From a virus: DNA of 29,419 nucleotides. Position numbers and translations under genes: made by a program. Location: the IMG/VR virus record IMGVR_UViG_3300049459_000153, positions 1-29,419 of that record, one strand, 5' to 3'. Every line of letters begins with the position of its first letter. The first letter of the stretch is position 1. The notes beneath the pieces were generated by a model. The model made no database searches and was not told the origin of the DNA. It saw nothing but the letters and a program-made list of their open reading frames with translations. Of the stretch, positions 5,089 through 19,219 are shown one piece after another.

Positions 5089-5754
5089 ATGCACCTTACC
5101 AAGCCAGACATTCCGTATTTGACCAGTGAGATCATCGGCACTGATGAAGGTTGTGGGATTTTCATCCCTGCTAACCGAATGCTTTATCAGTTTGTGAAAG
5201 ATAACCCGAGCAATACTGACAAGGCTCAGATCGCATCTAAGGCATTGATCATTGGACGAAGCCTCTCTGCATCTGCCGAGCGGCGCACACCAAGCGAAGT
5301 TGACCCCGTCACTGGTACAGCTAATTTCTACGACCTATTGGGGCAGACCATTGCCGACTCGATGGTCGGAGAGTTGCTCGATATGCTGGATGAGGATCAG
5401 GAACTCACGCCGATGTTGATCGGCGACGTTGTAAAGGCCCATGCTTTTCTATGCGATGCAGTCACCAAAATAACTGAAAAAGATTGCAGCAGTTTCTCTT
5501 CAAAATATCTCCATTTTCATCGCCCAAAGCTGTTTCCGATGATGGACTCTAGAGCTCGAACGGCTTTGAAATGGGTGGCAGATGAGCACGATTGGGTTTT
5601 CGCACATACAACTGCAGGGCAATCTAAAAACTACAGGGTTTACGTGGATCACTTCCTTCGGGCTCGCCAGCTTTTCGAAGATTATCTGGAGCGACCATTA
5701 AGCTTGAGAGAGATGGATAACATCCTTCTGAATCGATTCGACTTATACATTTGA
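5089..5754 (+). CDS. Accessory protein of unknown function inside the head operon (moron)
   Basis: The 221-residue product is not a recognised virion protein. It has a block KALIIGRSLSASAERR at residues 51-66 and a strongly patterned segment SSKYLHFHRP (137-146) followed by PMMDSRARTAL (150-160). I recall similar SSKYLHFH...DSRA patterns in uncharacterised bacterial proteins, some of which look related to helix-hairpin-helix/OGG-like DNA-glycosylase folds, but I cannot confirm this. It has no signal peptide or membrane segment. The gene has a good GGAG site 6 bases before ATG, a visibly more A/T-rich sequence than its neighbours (for example around 5461-5520) and a strong terminator directly after it. 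It separates the MuF-like gene from the scaffold, which normally adjoin. These traits mark a laterally gained gene, perhaps expressed in the lysogen. Confidence 0.8.
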   Translation: MHLTKPDIPYLTSEIIGTDEGCGIFIPANRMLYQFVKDNPSNTDKAQIASKALIIGRSLSASAERRTPSEVDPVTGTANFYDLLGQTIADSMVGELLDMLDEDQELTPMLIGDVVKAHAFLCDAVTKITEKDCSSFSSKYLHFHRPKLFPMMDSRARTALKWVADEHDWVFAHTTAGQSKNYRVYVDHFLRARQLFEDYLERPLSLREMDNILLNRFDLYI

Positions 5755-15278: not shown

Positions 15279-16031
15279 ATGGCACTGATCACGGACATCC
15301 AGAAACTGGAGCCCGGAGGCGAGATTCGCCTGTTCGAAATTGACGGCACTGAATATGGTGCGGATTTTCTGCGTTTCCATGCACACGCAATTCCGCATAC
15401 ACCGGAGGAATTGCTCGCTTACGAAGGCTCGATTGATGACCTGCCTGCGAAGTCGATCTTCTGGCAAGGCAATGAGTACGCGGCGTGGCCAGTTCAGATC
15501 GAGGGCATTGGTGCGGACAGTAATGGTAGCGCCACCAGGCCGACTTTCATGGCGGGTAACGTCAATGGGCGAATCACCGCGCTGTGCCTGGCCTTCGATG
15601 ATCTGCTGAAGTTTCAACTGACAGTGCGGGAGACGCTGGCCCAGTATCTGGATGCTGCGAACTTTCCGGACGGAAATCCGACAGCAGACCCGACGCAAGA
15701 GGCGCTGGAAATCTGGTTCATCGACCAGAAAACAGGCGAAGACGGTGAGGTTGTCCAGTGGGAGCTTTCGTCCCCGGGTGAGATCGACAACCACGGGTTG
15801 CCCGGGCGGCAGATGACGACCTTCTGCCACTGGGCCATGACCGGCGGCTATCGCGGACCTAACTGCAACTACACCGGTGGGGCGATGTTTGATCACGATG
15901 ACAATCTCGTCGACGACCCCAGCAAGGACGAGTGCAAGGGTGGATTAAAGTCCTGCAAGTTGCGCTTCGGCGAAAACAACCAGCTTCCACACGGTGGCTT
16001 TCCAGCCGTTTCTCTTATTGCACGGAGCTGA
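15279..16031 (+). CDS. Minor tail protein L with Fe-S cysteine set
   Basis: A 250-residue lambda gpL-like protein of the distal tail. It starts ALITDIQKLEPGGEIRLFEIDGT. Four cysteines are arranged as in lambda L: C183 (TTFCHW), C196 (GPNCNY), C219 (DECKGG) and C226 (LKSCKL). In lambda L the equivalent cysteines bind a [4Fe-4S] cluster; the same is inferred here. The ribosome-binding region is TTGAGGTAACGCC. The end of the protein is followed after 2 bases by the K gene. Confidence 0.92.
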   Translation: MALITDIQKLEPGGEIRLFEIDGTEYGADFLRFHAHAIPHTPEELLAYEGSIDDLPAKSIFWQGNEYAAWPVQIEGIGADSNGSATRPTFMAGNVNGRITALCLAFDDLLKFQLTVRETLAQYLDAANFPDGNPTADPTQEALEIWFIDQKTGEDGEVVQWELSSPGEIDNHGLPGRQMTTFCHWAMTGGYRGPNCNYTGGAMFDHDDNLVDDPSKDECKGGLKSCKLRFGENNQLPHGGFPAVSLIARS

Positions 16032-16033
16032 CC

Positions 16034-16798
16034 ATGCGCAAGCACATCTTGAGCGCGATCCAGGCGCACGCGGCGGCCGAGTACCCAAAAGAGTGCTGCG
16101 GCCTGCTGCTGGCCATTGGGCGCAAGCAACAATACTTTCCCTGCATTAATGTCTCGACCGAGCCGAACGAAGAGTTTCGAATCGACCCCGAGCAGTACGC
16201 GGCGGCGGAGGACGTCGGCGAGGTGATCGGCGTGGTGCATTCGCATCCGGACGCGACCAGCAGGCCGTCACCACGCGACCTGGCCATGTGCGAGGCCACC
16301 GCGCTACCCTGGCACATCCTGAGCTGGCCCGAAGGCGATCTTCGAACGGTCACACCGTCCGGCGAGGTACCGCTACTGAAGCGTCCTTTCGTGCACGGCG
16401 CGTGGGACTGCTGGCAGGTCTGCGCCGATTGGTACAAACGCGATTGGGGGCTGGAGTTCGAAGCCTTCAAACGCGCCGATGGCTGGTGGGAAAGCAAGGA
16501 CAACACCAGCCTATACGAGGCGAACTACGAGGCCGCCGGCTTCTACCGCGTCGACCAGCCGCAGCGCGGCGACATGATCGTGATGGAAGTGGGGCGCACG
16601 GTTTTCCCGAACCACGCCGGGATTTTCCTCGGCACTGACCCAGCGCTGCCAGGTGAGGATGCGGCGACGTTCGGCCCTGGGCCGTTCCTTCTGCATCACC
16701 TGTACGGAAGGCCATCGGAAATCATCATCTACGGTGGACCTTGGCATGAGCGAACACGCCTAATCCTCAGGCACAAAGATGCACGACCAACCAAATGA
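16034..16798 (+). CDS. Tail assembly protein K: JAMM protease plus NlpC/P60 domains
   Basis: A 254-residue protein with two fused hydrolase domains as in lambda gpK. The N-terminal JAMM/Mov34 domain has E20 and the zinc motif H69-S-H71-P with S79 and D82 (VVHSHPDATSRPSPRD). The C-terminal NlpC/P60 domain has the catalytic C126 in the DCWQ context and H194 in NHAGIFLG. Such proteins assemble and may process the tail tip and can cleave peptidoglycan during entry. The ATG at 16034 is chosen because it follows the L stop by 2 bases; the longer frame from 15932 overlaps L heavily and lacks a good start. The gene that should follow directly, I, is displaced by 1.8 kb. Confidence 0.92.
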   Translation: MRKHILSAIQAHAAAEYPKECCGLLLAIGRKQQYFPCINVSTEPNEEFRIDPEQYAAAEDVGEVIGVVHSHPDATSRPSPRDLAMCEATALPWHILSWPEGDLRTVTPSGEVPLLKRPFVHGAWDCWQVCADWYKRDWGLEFEAFKRADGWWESKDNTSLYEANYEAAGFYRVDQPQRGDMIVMEVGRTVFPNHAGIFLGTDPALPGEDAATFGPGPFLLHHLYGRPSEIIIYGGPWHERTRLILRHKDARPTK

Positions 16799-16822: not shown

Positions 16823-17017
16823 ATGGAAGTTAAAAATGAAATCCGAATCGGCTCAATCAGGGTTGAAAGCACCGAAGAAAATCAGAGCACAGTAGGGCGC
16901 GCCGATGGGCCTGTACCAGCTCCTATTGAGCGAGCTTTCATTGCGCATGAAAGCTCTGCAAGGGCCGAACTATTCGACGTAGAGGCGGTAAATGTCCGCT
17001 TGGAAGTCCATTACTAA
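16823..17017 (+). CDS. Small hypothetical protein at the start of the accessory cassette
   Basis: A 64-residue acidic reading frame (MEVKNEIRIGSIRVESTEENQS) with a good GGGAG site 8 bases before the ATG. It shows no recognisable domain, signal peptide or membrane segment. Its last 48 bases overlap the end of the reverse-strand protease gene, and its middle includes a perfect 10-bp hairpin. It could be a real small gene at the cassette edge or chance coding in a regulatory segment; coding evidence is limited to length and ribosome-binding site. Confidence 0.35.
   Translation: MEVKNEIRIGSIRVESTEENQSTVGRADGPVPAPIERAFIAHESSARAELFDVEAVNVRLEVHY
16932..16956. other. Perfect 10-bp stem-loop at the cassette edge
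   Basis: GAGCTTTCAT (16932-16941) and ATGAAAGCTC (16947-16956) are exact inverted repeats around the loop TGCGC. It lies 13 bases past the stop of the reverse-strand protease gene, so it may end that transcript or protect its 3' end, although no T run follows on either strand. It could also be a protein-binding site. Confidence 0.5.
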
Positions 17018-17539
17018 CCTCCCAGCCTTGATGACCAAAACACCAATGATCAGGCTTTCGCCGTGCTCGCCATCATCTACGAGGTTTGAGGAAAAAACGT
17101 CCGTTTCGTATTGATTGCCGGTTTCGGGCAGAAGTATGTGCGCTAAGTGTTGGGTCGATTCAGTCCATCCTCCACCGTTTCGTAACCTTGCAGTTCCGAT
17201 TTGCGGGCAGCCCGCTTCAGCAATCAATTTTGGTGTCGCGTAGTTATTGTCTGCCCCCGTATCGATGAGTGCGTAGGTTGGCTTGAGGCCAGTGAGAACT
17301 CTTGGCCCGGCACCGTGCTCCGGATCGTACCTAAGGACCGCGATGACGACCGGCCTTCCCGGCGGCCGAGCATAGGTTTTGCCGTCTTTTCGTAAAAACC
17401 TGATCTGTGCGAATTTGGTTTCATCCGGTATCACGTAAGAGCTCAAGCAGACCTCCAGGTCATAAACGCGCCGAAATTGGCGCAGTCCCAGTCCTTGGGC
17501 TTGCAGGCAAAGGACTGGGTATTTAAAAGCAATCAGCAC
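16970..17539 (-). CDS. Retropepsin-like aspartic protease
   Basis: The product carries the catalytic block YALIDTGADNNYATPKLI (Asp-Thr-Gly; Asp at about residue 93 from the GTG start) and, near the C-terminus, the second element SLIIGVLVIKAGRLVMDF, the hydrophobic-hydrophobic-Gly of single-domain retroviral-type proteases. Such proteins are active as homodimers. The first 75 residues are a separate domain of unknown type, and no signal peptide is seen. The GTG at 17539 has GGAGG 11 bases upstream and overlaps the stop of the preceding membrane-protein gene; a TTG at 17557 is possible. It is oriented against the tail operon. Substrate and partner are unknown; coupling to the membrane protein is inferred. 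Confidence 0.76.
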   Translation of the reverse strand: MLIAFKYPVLCLQAQGLGLRQFRRVYDLEVCLSSYVIPDETKFAQIRFLRKDGKTYARPPGRPVVIAVLRYDPEHGAGPRVLTGLKPTYALIDTGADNNYATPKLIAEAGCPQIGTARLRNGGGWTESTQHLAHILLPETGNQYETDVFSSNLVDDGEHGESLIIGVLVIKAGRLVMDFQADIYRLYVE

Positions 17540-18069
17540 TGTTTGATTTGCCTCCAAGTGGTCTTCGTTTTCTTCACGATCCTGATTTGTTCTTGTCGAA
17601 CTTCACGATCTTTTGCTCGCCTAGGCGAGCGATATCTGGAGGGGATGGTTCTTGTGAATCCATGTCCAAGGCGACTGGCTTCTTGAAGGAGCGTCTCAAC
17701 AAACGTTTTCTGGGATAACCACCAAACTTCTAGCGCGAGCGGCGGAGCCATGTAAACGAGCTGGTAAATGACTCGACTTGTTGAAGAAGTCGTTTGAAGC
17801 GCTATTAACATGACTCCCATCGATACGATTGCTGACAACATGAACGCTCCGAAAAGCGCGCCCTCTTTCTGAAGCTGTCGCTGTACAGCGAAGGCATCGA
17901 CACGAAGCGCTTTCGCCTTTTTCAGCTCTTTGCTGCGAGACTTTCGAAGGGCTTTCCCTACGAAGCGCTGTGCGGGAACGAAAGCTTTTTTGAAGCCCCA
18001 AAAAGCCAAAGCGACAAGAACAGGGAGATACAGATCTTTGTAGCTAGGTAAATCAGTAGCGAGATCCAT
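17533..18069 (-). CDS. Membrane protein of unknown function paired with the protease
   Basis: A 178-residue protein predicted to cross the membrane two or three times: residues 13-25 (LYLPVLVALAFWGF), 71-91 (ALFGAFMLSAIVSMGVMLIAL) and about 100-118. A basic, helical cytoplasmic segment separates the first two (residues 30-65, ALRKSRSKELKKAKALR), and the C-terminus is highly basic (RSPRRAKDREVRQEQIRIVKKTK). No known domain recognised. An AGGAT site precedes the ATG. The stop overlaps the start of the protease gene, so the two are almost certainly cotranscribed and coupled. Confidence 0.78.
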   Translation of the reverse strand: MDLATDLPSYKDLYLPVLVALAFWGFKKAFVPAQRFVGKALRKSRSKELKKAKALRVDAFAVQRQLQKEGALFGAFMLSAIVSMGVMLIALQTTSSTSRVIYQLVYMAPPLALEVWWLSQKTFVETLLQEASRLGHGFTRTIPSRYRSPRRAKDREVRQEQIRIVKKTKTTWRQIKQC

Positions 18070-18201
18070 ACCGGATCCTTCAAAAGAAATAAGGCATAAC
18101 GCTACTACTTATGGATCCAATTTTGCCACTGGCATTCCATCCACGCTGGATGCCCGGACAGTGCCGCGCTAAAGTGCATCATTTCCACAGGAGTGACCTG
18201 C
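18070..18201. promoter_or_regulatory. Divergent intergenic region between membrane-protein and lipoprotein genes
   Basis: This 132-base gap separates two outward-facing genes, so both promoters should lie here. On the reverse strand TTGGAT is followed after 16 bases by TATGCC. On the forward strand TTGCCA at 18123-18128 has no convincing partner. ATCCA (18139-18143) and TGGAT (18147-18151) form a small inverted repeat that could be an operator. None of these is a strong match. Confidence 0.32.
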
Positions 18202-18552
18202 ATGAAATTGATCTTAGGAGCGCTGGCGGTAGCGCTGTTGGCGGGGTGTATGGCACCGACGATGAACGAAGCTAGGCAGAAAGGGCCGGACAAGATTCTG
18301 TACTCGAAAAAGTCTGACAAGGCAGTCGCTCAGTGCACTCAGTACGAATGGCAGAATCAATCCCTGTTCGGGGTAACGCCTGAAGCGACTCTTCAGCCTG
18401 GGCGCGATAATGGCTACACCGTGTTCACTGCCGGATCTGAATATTTCGTCGACATTCAACCTGGAGCATCCGGTGCAGTGATCAAGTATTACGCAGTGTT
18501 GAACAACTGGATATCTGCTAAACGACTGAGCGCTCTGCAAAGCTGCCTTTGA
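18202..18552 (+). CDS. Small lipoprotein (lysogenic-conversion type)
   Basis: The 116-residue protein starts MKLILGALAVALLAGCMAPT, a classical type II signal peptide with lipobox LAGC and lipidated C16. The mature part is about 101 residues with three further Cys, no recognised domain, and a polar, beta-like composition. The ATG at 18202 has AGGAG 8 bases upstream, better than the GTG at 18193. A strong terminator follows. Small phage lipoproteins such as lambda Bor or Cor-like exclusion proteins are the closest functional analogies, but sequence similarity is not evident. It is probably inserted in the inner or outer membrane of the host. Confidence 0.84.
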   Translation: MKLILGALAVALLAGCMAPTMNEARQKGPDKILYSKKSDKAVAQCTQYEWQNQSLFGVTPEATLQPGRDNGYTVFTAGSEYFVDIQPGASGAVIKYYAVLNNWISAKRLSALQSCL

Positions 18553-18590: not shown

Positions 18591-18607
18591 ATTGCATGGA
18601 GAAAAGT

Positions 18608-19219
18608 ATGTCTGCACTGGCAATCAATTATCAGCCCATGACAACGATCTTGCTTTATGGGCAACTTCGCCAGTTCGGCCGCTCCTTCCGCCTTTCGGTG
18701 AGGACGCCCGCTGAAGCCATCAAGGCTCTCTGTGTGCAAATCCCCGGTTTTGAAAGATTCCTTTCCAATGCGAAATCTCGCGGAATCGAGTTCGCTGTAT
18801 TTCGAGGTAAAACAAATATCGGAGAGTCGGAGCTGGGATTTGGGGGGGATGGAGAGATTCGGATCGCGCCGATCATCACTGGCAGCAAGAAGGCTGGCGG
18901 ACTTCAAACGATTATCGGCGCGGTGCTTATCGTTGTCGGCTTGGTCATCACCGGCGGCACATTTGGCGCCGGCGCGCCCTTTGGCTCCGCGCTGATCACG
19001 ATGGGGGCATCTATGGCTATCGGCGGCGTGATTCAAATGCTCAGCCCCGCAGCCAACGGTCTGAAGACCAGCGCGTCACCCGAAAACACTCCCGGTTACG
19101 CCTTTGGCAGCGCCAAGAACACTACCGCATCGGGTAACCCGGTCCCGCTCTGTTACGGCAAGCGCCGTGTAGGCGGAGCAATCATAAGCGCCGCGATCTA
19201 CGCCGAAGACCAGATGTAG
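18608..19219 (+). CDS. Tail assembly protein I
   Basis: A 203-residue lambda gpI-like protein required for tail-tip assembly. Residues 13-90 form the conserved domain (TILLYGQLRQFGRSFRLSV, IPGFERFL), and a long hydrophobic Gly/Ala-rich segment at about 99-146 (TIIGAVLIVVGLVITGG...) precedes the end SGNPVPLCYGKRRVGGAIISAAI, a well-known gpI C-terminal motif. The ATG at 18608 has GGAG 6 bases upstream and is preferred to 18596. In lambda it overlaps K; here the accessory cassette separates them and a terminator precedes the gene, so its expression needs read-through or its own signal. Confidence 0.91.
   Translation: MSALAINYQPMTTILLYGQLRQFGRSFRLSVRTPAEAIKALCVQIPGFERFLSNAKSRGIEFAVFRGKTNIGESELGFGGDGEIRIAPIITGSKKAGGLQTIIGAVLIVVGLVITGGTFGAGAPFGSALITMGASMAIGGVIQMLSPAANGLKTSASPENTPGYAFGSAKNTTASGNPVPLCYGKRRVGGAIISAAIYAEDQM

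What the first reader, a model, noticed from the sequence alone, without database searches (positions are those of the whole stretch)
16970..17539. Retropepsin-like aspartic protease encoded by a prophage
The sequence shows LIDTGAD and a downstream IIG-x-L-V-I block, the two structural landmarks of single-domain aspartic proteases. Bacterial members are rare and mostly of unknown function, and one within a phage tail operon, fused to an uncharacterised N-terminal domain, is unusual.
Basis: partly seen in the sequence, partly recalled or inferred. Interest (0 to 1): 0.62.

Follow-up and report, generated by a model that had tools for sequence, protein, structure and literature searches.

The report
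Retropepsin carried in swapping prophage cassette
A Pseudomonas prophage carries a small gene for a protease built like the HIV protease; it is one of many interchangeable passenger genes that swap in and out of a fixed slot in the tail operon, always in reverse orientation, most likely (not yet tested) to change or protect the bacterium that carries the prophage.

Summary
The minus-strand ORF encodes a retropepsin-fold protease: invariant DTGA in 43 relatives, AlphaFold pLDDT 86.5, best PDB matches FIV, EIAV, HTLV-1 and HIV-1 proteases and Rickettsia APRc, dN/dS about 0.05. The true start is the internal TTG at 17446 (158 aa), so the 'N-terminal domain' is mostly a mis-called start; residues 1-37 of the 195-aa ORF are a conserved non-coding linker.

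The gene is not part of the tail operon. It lies antisense in the K-I gap as cargo of a 'reverse moron' cassette: leader T1, membrane-protein gene, linker T2, protease. In loci fetched with the T1 and T2 sequences, both elements are always antisense to tail genes and almost always between K and I. They precede 57 gene families. Genes reassort across T2: of 49 pairs sharing the upstream gene, 46 have unrelated downstream genes. Enterobacterial phages (HK97, HK022, ES18) have a different conserved leader in front of reverse morons, including a related retropepsin.

Most likely function (inferred): a prophage protease active in lysogeny, probably against superinfecting phage. Morons are known; the conserved leader/linker pair and two-slot shuffling appear undescribed. 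No cleavage activity, dimer or expression was tested.

The parts
16970..17446 (-). Retropepsin-like aspartic protease CDS (158 aa, TTG start), slot B cargo
   Evidence: Homologue start sites and GGAGG spacing; family alignment A2; AF2/Foldseek; dN/dS
17261..17263 (-). Catalytic Asp codon (D62 of DTGAD)
   Evidence: invariant in 43 of 43 relatives
17450..17520 (-). T2 linker: hairpin CCCAGTCCTTTGCCTGCAAGCCCAAGGACTGGG, then GCGCC-AATTTC-GGCGC and a Shine-Dalgarno (GACCTGGAGGTC); breakpoint between slot A and slot B
   Evidence: 159 distinct copies, logo, breakpoint analysis. Approximate ends
17533..18069 (-). Slot A cargo: 178-aa protein with at least two predicted membrane segments, no family match
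   Evidence: shared with L154, L173, L200, where slot B differs
18090..18162 (-). T1 leader (about 75 nt) upstream of slot A
   Evidence: 155 distinct copies, sharp-edged logo, alignment A3. Approximate ends
16886..16903 (-). Terminator-like hairpin downstream of the protease (weak; shuffles give 2.2 such sites by chance)
16823..17017 (+). Small sense ORF (64 aa) convergent with the protease and overlapping its 3' end by 48 nt; probably a real gene
   Evidence: homologues in L001, L002, L003; non-overlap dN/dS about 0.28-0.43
15932..16798 (+). Tail tip assembly gene K (JAB + NlpC/P60), left flank of the cassette (ORF as listed; the true start may be internal)
18193..18552 (+). Small lipoprotein (phrog_914), right flank
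18596..19219 (+). Tail assembly gene I, right flank

Best explanation
A catalytically intact, single-domain retropepsin-type protease, expected to work as a homodimer in the cytoplasm. It is slot-B cargo of a two-slot 'reverse moron' cassette inserted antisense between tail genes K and I of a Pseudomonas lambda-like prophage. T1 (leader) and T2 (linker with ribosome-binding site) are conserved modules that let cargo genes be exchanged by recombination while staying expressible. Shown by sequence: fold family, catalytic motif, purifying selection, antisense K-I location, conserved T1/T2, reassortment of cargo across T2. Inferred: expression in lysogeny, dimerisation, proteolysis, exchange by homologous recombination at T1/T2, and the role. 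The most likely role is prophage-encoded defence: the protease cleaves a protein of superinfecting phage (or a host protein that such phage need).
For: Fold and catalysis. Real start and linker. Antisense in all 502 flank comparisons, K-I or K-lipoprotein gap in 206 of 213. Cassette absent from the K-I gap annotation of related isolates phiAH14a and PseuP_222, so dispensable. 57 cargo families after T1/T2; 87 two-slot arrays with 61 distinct A-B family combinations. Across T2, 46 of 49 same-upstream pairs have unrelated downstream sequence and 36 of 44 same-downstream pairs have unrelated upstream sequence. Window against L200: 96-100% identity through gene A, then collapse at T2; window against L001: the reverse. 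Eleven of 17 T1/T2-linked protease copies follow T1 directly, so no obligate membrane-protein partner. Other cargo includes a NucS-like PD-(D/E)XK nuclease matching PADLOC candidate PDC-S02, HsdR-N and ClpP. Enterobacterial analogues are annotated 'reverse moron' in HK97 and 'moron' in HK022 and ES18. Literature: morons are generally expressed in lysogeny, and one antisense moron has its own promoter (PMC7067206).
Against: No activity, dimer, expression or anti-phage assay. No PADLOC or PHROG family matches the protease, and most cargo families have no known function. No sigma-70 consensus promoter was found near T1. T1 shows no covariation, so its nature (RNA leader or DNA site) is open. T1/T2 loci were mostly fetched by exact core match, which inflates core conservation, and exactly identical contexts were collapsed, which slightly inflates the discordance counts.
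Confidence: 0.5

Rival explanations
1. Lysogenic conversion without defence: the protease processes a host protein (a regulator, ribosome-modification factor or envelope protein) and so alters host physiology, as the host retropepsin-like protease of the Pseudomonas RimABK system does.
For: Characterised bacterial retropepsins act on host proteins (PMC11957791, abstract seen). Cytosolic single-domain protein with no phage-assembly context. Moron cargo is functionally diverse.
Against: Rapid cargo exchange and nuclease/defence-like neighbours fit arms-race genes better. No substrate known.
Confidence: 0.25
2. Counter-defence or prophage self-regulation: the protease cleaves a repressor, a host defence protein or a competing prophage's product during infection or induction.
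For: Accessory phage gene with its own leader. Other peptidase-fold cargo (ClpP) at the same locus.
Against: Antisense to late genes and not linked to immunity genes. Relatives lack the cassette altogether.
Confidence: 0.13
3. Virion maturation protease of the tail or head, as retroviral proteases are for Gag.
For: Lies physically inside the tail gene cluster.
Against: Antisense in every locus compared. Interchangeable with unrelated genes at the same site. No such gene in the K-I gap of related isolates.
Confidence: 0.03
4. The ORF is spurious or a decayed gene.
For: One homologue (L005/L020) is frameshifted.
Against: dN/dS about 0.05, invariant catalytic motif, matching starts.
Confidence: 0.01

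Closest known systems
Retropepsins (MEROPS A2; HIV-1, FIV, EIAV, HTLV-1 proteases)
   Same: Single pepsin lobe with DTGA and a hydrophobic-hydrophobic-G motif; Foldseek E down to 4e-5, target TM 0.6-0.7; profile E 7.7e-6 to HTLV-1 protease.
   Different: Free-standing gene of a dsDNA tailed phage, not part of Gag-Pol; about 55-residue N-terminal stretch before DTG; no polyprotein.
Bacterial retropepsin-like proteases (Rickettsia APRc 5c9f; host 'retropepsin-like aspartic protease' genes)
   Same: Fold and catalytic motif. The ten weak hits in Pseudomonas genomes look like such host genes (inference).
   Different: APRc is membrane-linked (established knowledge); this one is cytosolic, prophage-borne and carried in a cassette.
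Reverse morons of HK97 (gp23), HK022 (srb, gp23) and ES18 (gp25)
   Same: Small antisense accessory genes inside the tail region, preceded by a conserved leader.
   Different: I-J or other gap; a different leader sequence (TE); T2 was found only in Pseudomonas-type loci; different cargo.
Enterobacter phage-plasmid retropepsins (NZ_CP091500, NZ_CP083846)
   Same: Antisense in phage late genes, same protein family at 27% identity, TE leader, convergent small ORF.
   Different: Different leader, no T2, different gaps.
Tab/anti-Tab of P. aeruginosa phage JBD26
   Same: Prophage moron giving phage resistance (PMC10884400).
   Different: Encoded in the late operon between the terminase genes; blocks virion assembly; no protease fold.

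Membership tests
Retropepsin (family A2-like, clan AA) | D-[TS]-G-[AS] catalytic motif | tested here: met
   Invariant in 43 relatives
Retropepsin (family A2-like, clan AA) | Single-lobe pepsin fold | tested here: met
   AF2 pLDDT 86.5, pTM 0.81; Foldseek to retroviral proteases and APRc
Retropepsin (family A2-like, clan AA) | Downstream hydrophobic-hydrophobic-Gly motif | tested here: met
   IIG at residues 133-135, G135 invariant
Retropepsin (family A2-like, clan AA) | Profile match to curated family models | tested here: met
   26 of 43 members hit PF13650 and 26 hit PF13975 at E<=0.01; the window member alone is below the Pfam cut-off
Retropepsin (family A2-like, clan AA) | Homodimer with DTG loops facing | not testable with these tools
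   Only monomer prediction is offered
Retropepsin (family A2-like, clan AA) | Pepstatin-type or protease-inhibitor-sensitive cleavage activity | not testable with these tools
   Needs biochemistry
Phage moron | Accessory gene absent from close relatives | tested here: met
   K-I gap of phiAH14a and PseuP_222 carries no antisense cassette
Phage moron | Own promoter and terminator | tested here: inconclusive
   Conserved leader T1, but no sigma-70 consensus match and one weak terminator
Phage moron | Expressed in the lysogen and changes the host | not testable with these tools
   Needs RNA-seq and phenotyping
Integron gene cassette | attC sites and an integrase | not tested
   Considered because of the T2 hairpin. 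No integrase seen in the annotated flanks examined and T2 has no obvious attC boxes (inspection only)
Anti-phage defence system | Match to known defence families | tested here: not met
   No PADLOC hit for the protease or the membrane protein
Structured regulatory RNA (T1) | Covarying helices or an Rfam family | tested here: not met

The most novel reading that the evidence does not exclude
T1 and T2 define a previously undescribed, integrase-free gene-cassette platform in Pseudomonas tailed phages: two addressed slots, antisense in the tail operon, that combinatorially exchange dozens of mostly unknown anti-phage or host-modifying genes. The HIV-like protease is a new kind of prophage defence effector among them. 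A parallel platform with another leader exists in enterobacterial phages and shares cargo families with it.
Probability: 0.35. Interest if true: 0.85.

Novelty: new variant of a known kind. Interest (0 to 1): 0.62.

Why it matters
T1 and T2 work as sequence handles: searching for them pulls out dozens of uncharacterised prophage accessory genes that are hard to recognise otherwise, many likely to be anti-phage or host-modifying. The retropepsin would be an HIV-protease-like enzyme used in a phage-bacterium conflict, testable with known aspartic protease inhibitors. The two-slot shuffling gives a concrete, testable picture of how prophages trade accessory genes without an integrase.

Tried and rejected
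Rfam gave no family for T1 or T2. RNAalifold gave no fold for T1 and only a three-pair stem for T2; an explicit T1 hairpin showed no covariation beyond shuffles, so a riboswitch/ribozyme reading was dropped. The T2 hairpin is clear in sequence but several copies (L203, L206, L154) have a broken 5' arm, which fits a recombination junction better than a strictly structured RNA. A fixed-distance sigma-70 promoter upstream of T1 was not found. Single-sequence PDB search gave only chance hits. PHROGs, NCBIfam and PADLOC gave nothing for the protease or the membrane protein. An obligate protease-membrane partner model was dropped because the slots reassort. ST64B was fetched to link the leader to a measured lysogeny transcript; the antisense gene discussed in the paper was not identified in the annotation and only poor leader matches (6 mismatches) were found, so nothing is claimed. 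No held paper was found that pairs retropepsins with prophages or describes T1/T2; that library lacks most subscription journals, and the original HK97/HK022 paper was not read.

Full report
Observation. The minus-strand ORF 17557..16970 exists and carries ALIDTGAD and LIIGVLVI. The start should be moved. Homologues begin with M/V-x-x-Y-x-(I/V)-P at the residue that is position 38 of the 195-aa ORF; the window has a TTG there preceded by GGAGG, and L001 has the same TTG with the same spacing. The protein is therefore 158 aa (17446..16970). The 37 residues upstream translate a conserved linker, which is also found before an unrelated gene in MT836437. The 'uncharacterised N-terminal domain' thus shrinks to the roughly 55-residue stretch before DTG, part of which is predicted as strands of the same domain.

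Is it a retropepsin? Alone it gives only a sub-threshold Pfam hit (E 0.046). With relatives from viral contigs, Pseudomonas genomes and Enterobacter plasmids the case is strong. In 43 sequences D62-T63-G64-A65 and G135 are invariant. Twenty-six members hit PF13650 and 26 hit PF13975. The profile finds HTLV-1 protease at 7.7e-6 and Ddi1 at 7e-5. The AlphaFold model (pLDDT 86.5, pTM 0.81) matches FIV, EIAV, HTLV-1 and HIV-1 proteases and Rickettsia APRc at Foldseek E 4e-5 to 9e-4, and phage proteins named aspartic or acid protease in BFVD. Close homologues show dN/dS about 0.03-0.13. Dimerisation could not be tested.

Where it sits. The window is a 29.4-kb IMG/VR virus record related to Pseudomonas siphophages phiAH14a, PseuP_222 and Medea1. 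The protease lies antisense between tail tip gene K and a lipoprotein plus gene I. The annotations of phiAH14a and PseuP_222 show no antisense gene in this gap, so it is accessory. Upstream on the same strand is a 178-aa membrane protein.

Two conserved elements. Upstream of the membrane protein is T1, a roughly 75-nt block: CCTGTCC-x-GGCATCCAGCGTGGATGGAATGCCAGTAAC, a spacer of near-constant length, then (C)GTAGTAGCGTTGTGCC. Between the two genes is T2, a hairpin CCCAGTCCTT...AAGGACTGGG followed by GCGCC-AATTTC-GGCGC and a Shine-Dalgarno. Core searches of viral contigs returned 101 stretches with T1 and at least 120 with T2; a relaxed scan of 323 loci gave 155 and 159 distinct copies and none in shuffled sequence. 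Conservation has sharp edges. The cores were used for fetching, so their conservation is inflated, but the conserved flanks (CCTGTCC, TAGTAGC..GCC, the 5' hairpin arm, the GGCGC stem) were not part of the search. T1 was present in 32 of 149 Pseudomonas species genomes, with no hits to the reversed control pattern, and in P. aeruginosa phage AUS531phi at the same K-I position, antisense, before a small ORF. Neither element has an Rfam family, and T1 shows no covariation, so whether T1 acts as RNA or DNA is open.

A swapping cassette. In all 502 comparisons with the nearest structural gene, T1 and T2 are antisense, and 206 of 213 fully flanked copies lie between K and I or K and the lipoprotein. 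A few genomic T1 copies lie elsewhere. ORFs following T1/T2 fall into 57 families. Most are small and unknown; exceptions include ClpP, a NucS-like PD-(D/E)XK nuclease (PADLOC PDC-S02), HsdR-N, BRCT and DUF6338 proteins. Reassortment is the key result. Of 49 pairs with at least 85% identity upstream of T2, 46 have no detectable similarity downstream and one matches on both sides; of 44 pairs alike downstream, 36 have no similarity upstream. T1 behaves similarly (33 of 46 and 44 of 57). Exactly identical contexts had been collapsed beforehand, which removes some concordant pairs. Eighty-seven two-slot arrays show 61 distinct A-B combinations from 23 A and 19 B families. The window is itself an example: it shares gene A with L200 at 96-100% identity until T2, after which the sequences diverge, and it shares the protease with L001 only from T2 onwards. 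In L154 the same gene A is followed by a divergent retropepsin. The protease follows T1 directly in 11 of 17 T1/T2-linked copies, so it does not need the membrane protein.

A parallel in enterobacteria. Enterobacterial relatives of the protease lie antisense in phage late genes behind a different long leader, TE, found in at least 120 viral stretches, usually before different small genes. TE occurs in HK97, HK022, HK633, ES18 and SPN3UB. In HK97 it directly precedes gp23, annotated 'reverse moron product'; in HK022 it precedes srb/gp23, and in ES18 gp25, both annotated as morons or possible morons. Three cargo families, the retropepsin among them, occur behind both TE and T1/T2.

How it most likely works. 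Morons are generally expressed in lysogeny, and an antisense Salmonella moron has its own promoter (PMC7067206). By analogy, the cassette is expected to be transcribed in the lysogen, with T1 as leader and T2 supplying a ribosome-binding site for slot B. Short conserved blocks such as T1 and T2 would allow exchange by phage recombinases; this is inference from known relaxed phage recombination and was not tested. The protease is expected to be a cytosolic homodimer. The cargo pattern (rapid exchange, nucleases, other peptidases) favours anti-phage defence over host conversion, but not decisively; about 0.5 is my confidence in the whole statement, with the fold, location and shuffling parts much firmer than the role.

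Novelty. Retropepsin folds in bacteria and phages are known, and reverse morons are already annotated in HK97 and HK022. I found no description of the retropepsin as moron cargo, of T1/T2, or of two-slot reassortment in the papers held, which omit most subscription journals. I rate it a new variant of a known kind.

Noticed in passing
window 16823-17017 (+): A 64-aa sense ORF with a good ribosome-binding site overlaps the protease's 3' end; homologues and dN/dS about 0.28-0.43 suggest a real gene. Convergent overlapping small genes recur at this locus, as in HK97 gp22/gp23 and the Enterobacter plasmids.
   Followed up: partly
L013 11036-11587; L162: ClpP-like peptidase genes occur as antisense accessory genes: near the retropepsin in an Enterobacter phage-plasmid, and behind T1 in a Pseudomonas contig.
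   Followed up: partly
L268, L209, L446: A T1 cargo family resembling an Ntn-hydrolase/proteasome-type peptidase by eye; no Pfam hit.
   Followed up: partly
L440, L441, L444, L445, L446, L450: T1-like elements in Pseudomonas genomes without tail genes K/I nearby, some in front of the same cargo families, so the cassette also occurs at other loci.
   Followed up: partly
window 5089-5754 (+): A 221-aa protein of unknown function between head genes, with only insignificant family matches.
   Followed up: no
L466 (Salmonella phage SPN3UB) 1923-2271 and 5013-5347: Two TE leaders with two reverse morons in different gaps of one phage.
   Followed up: no
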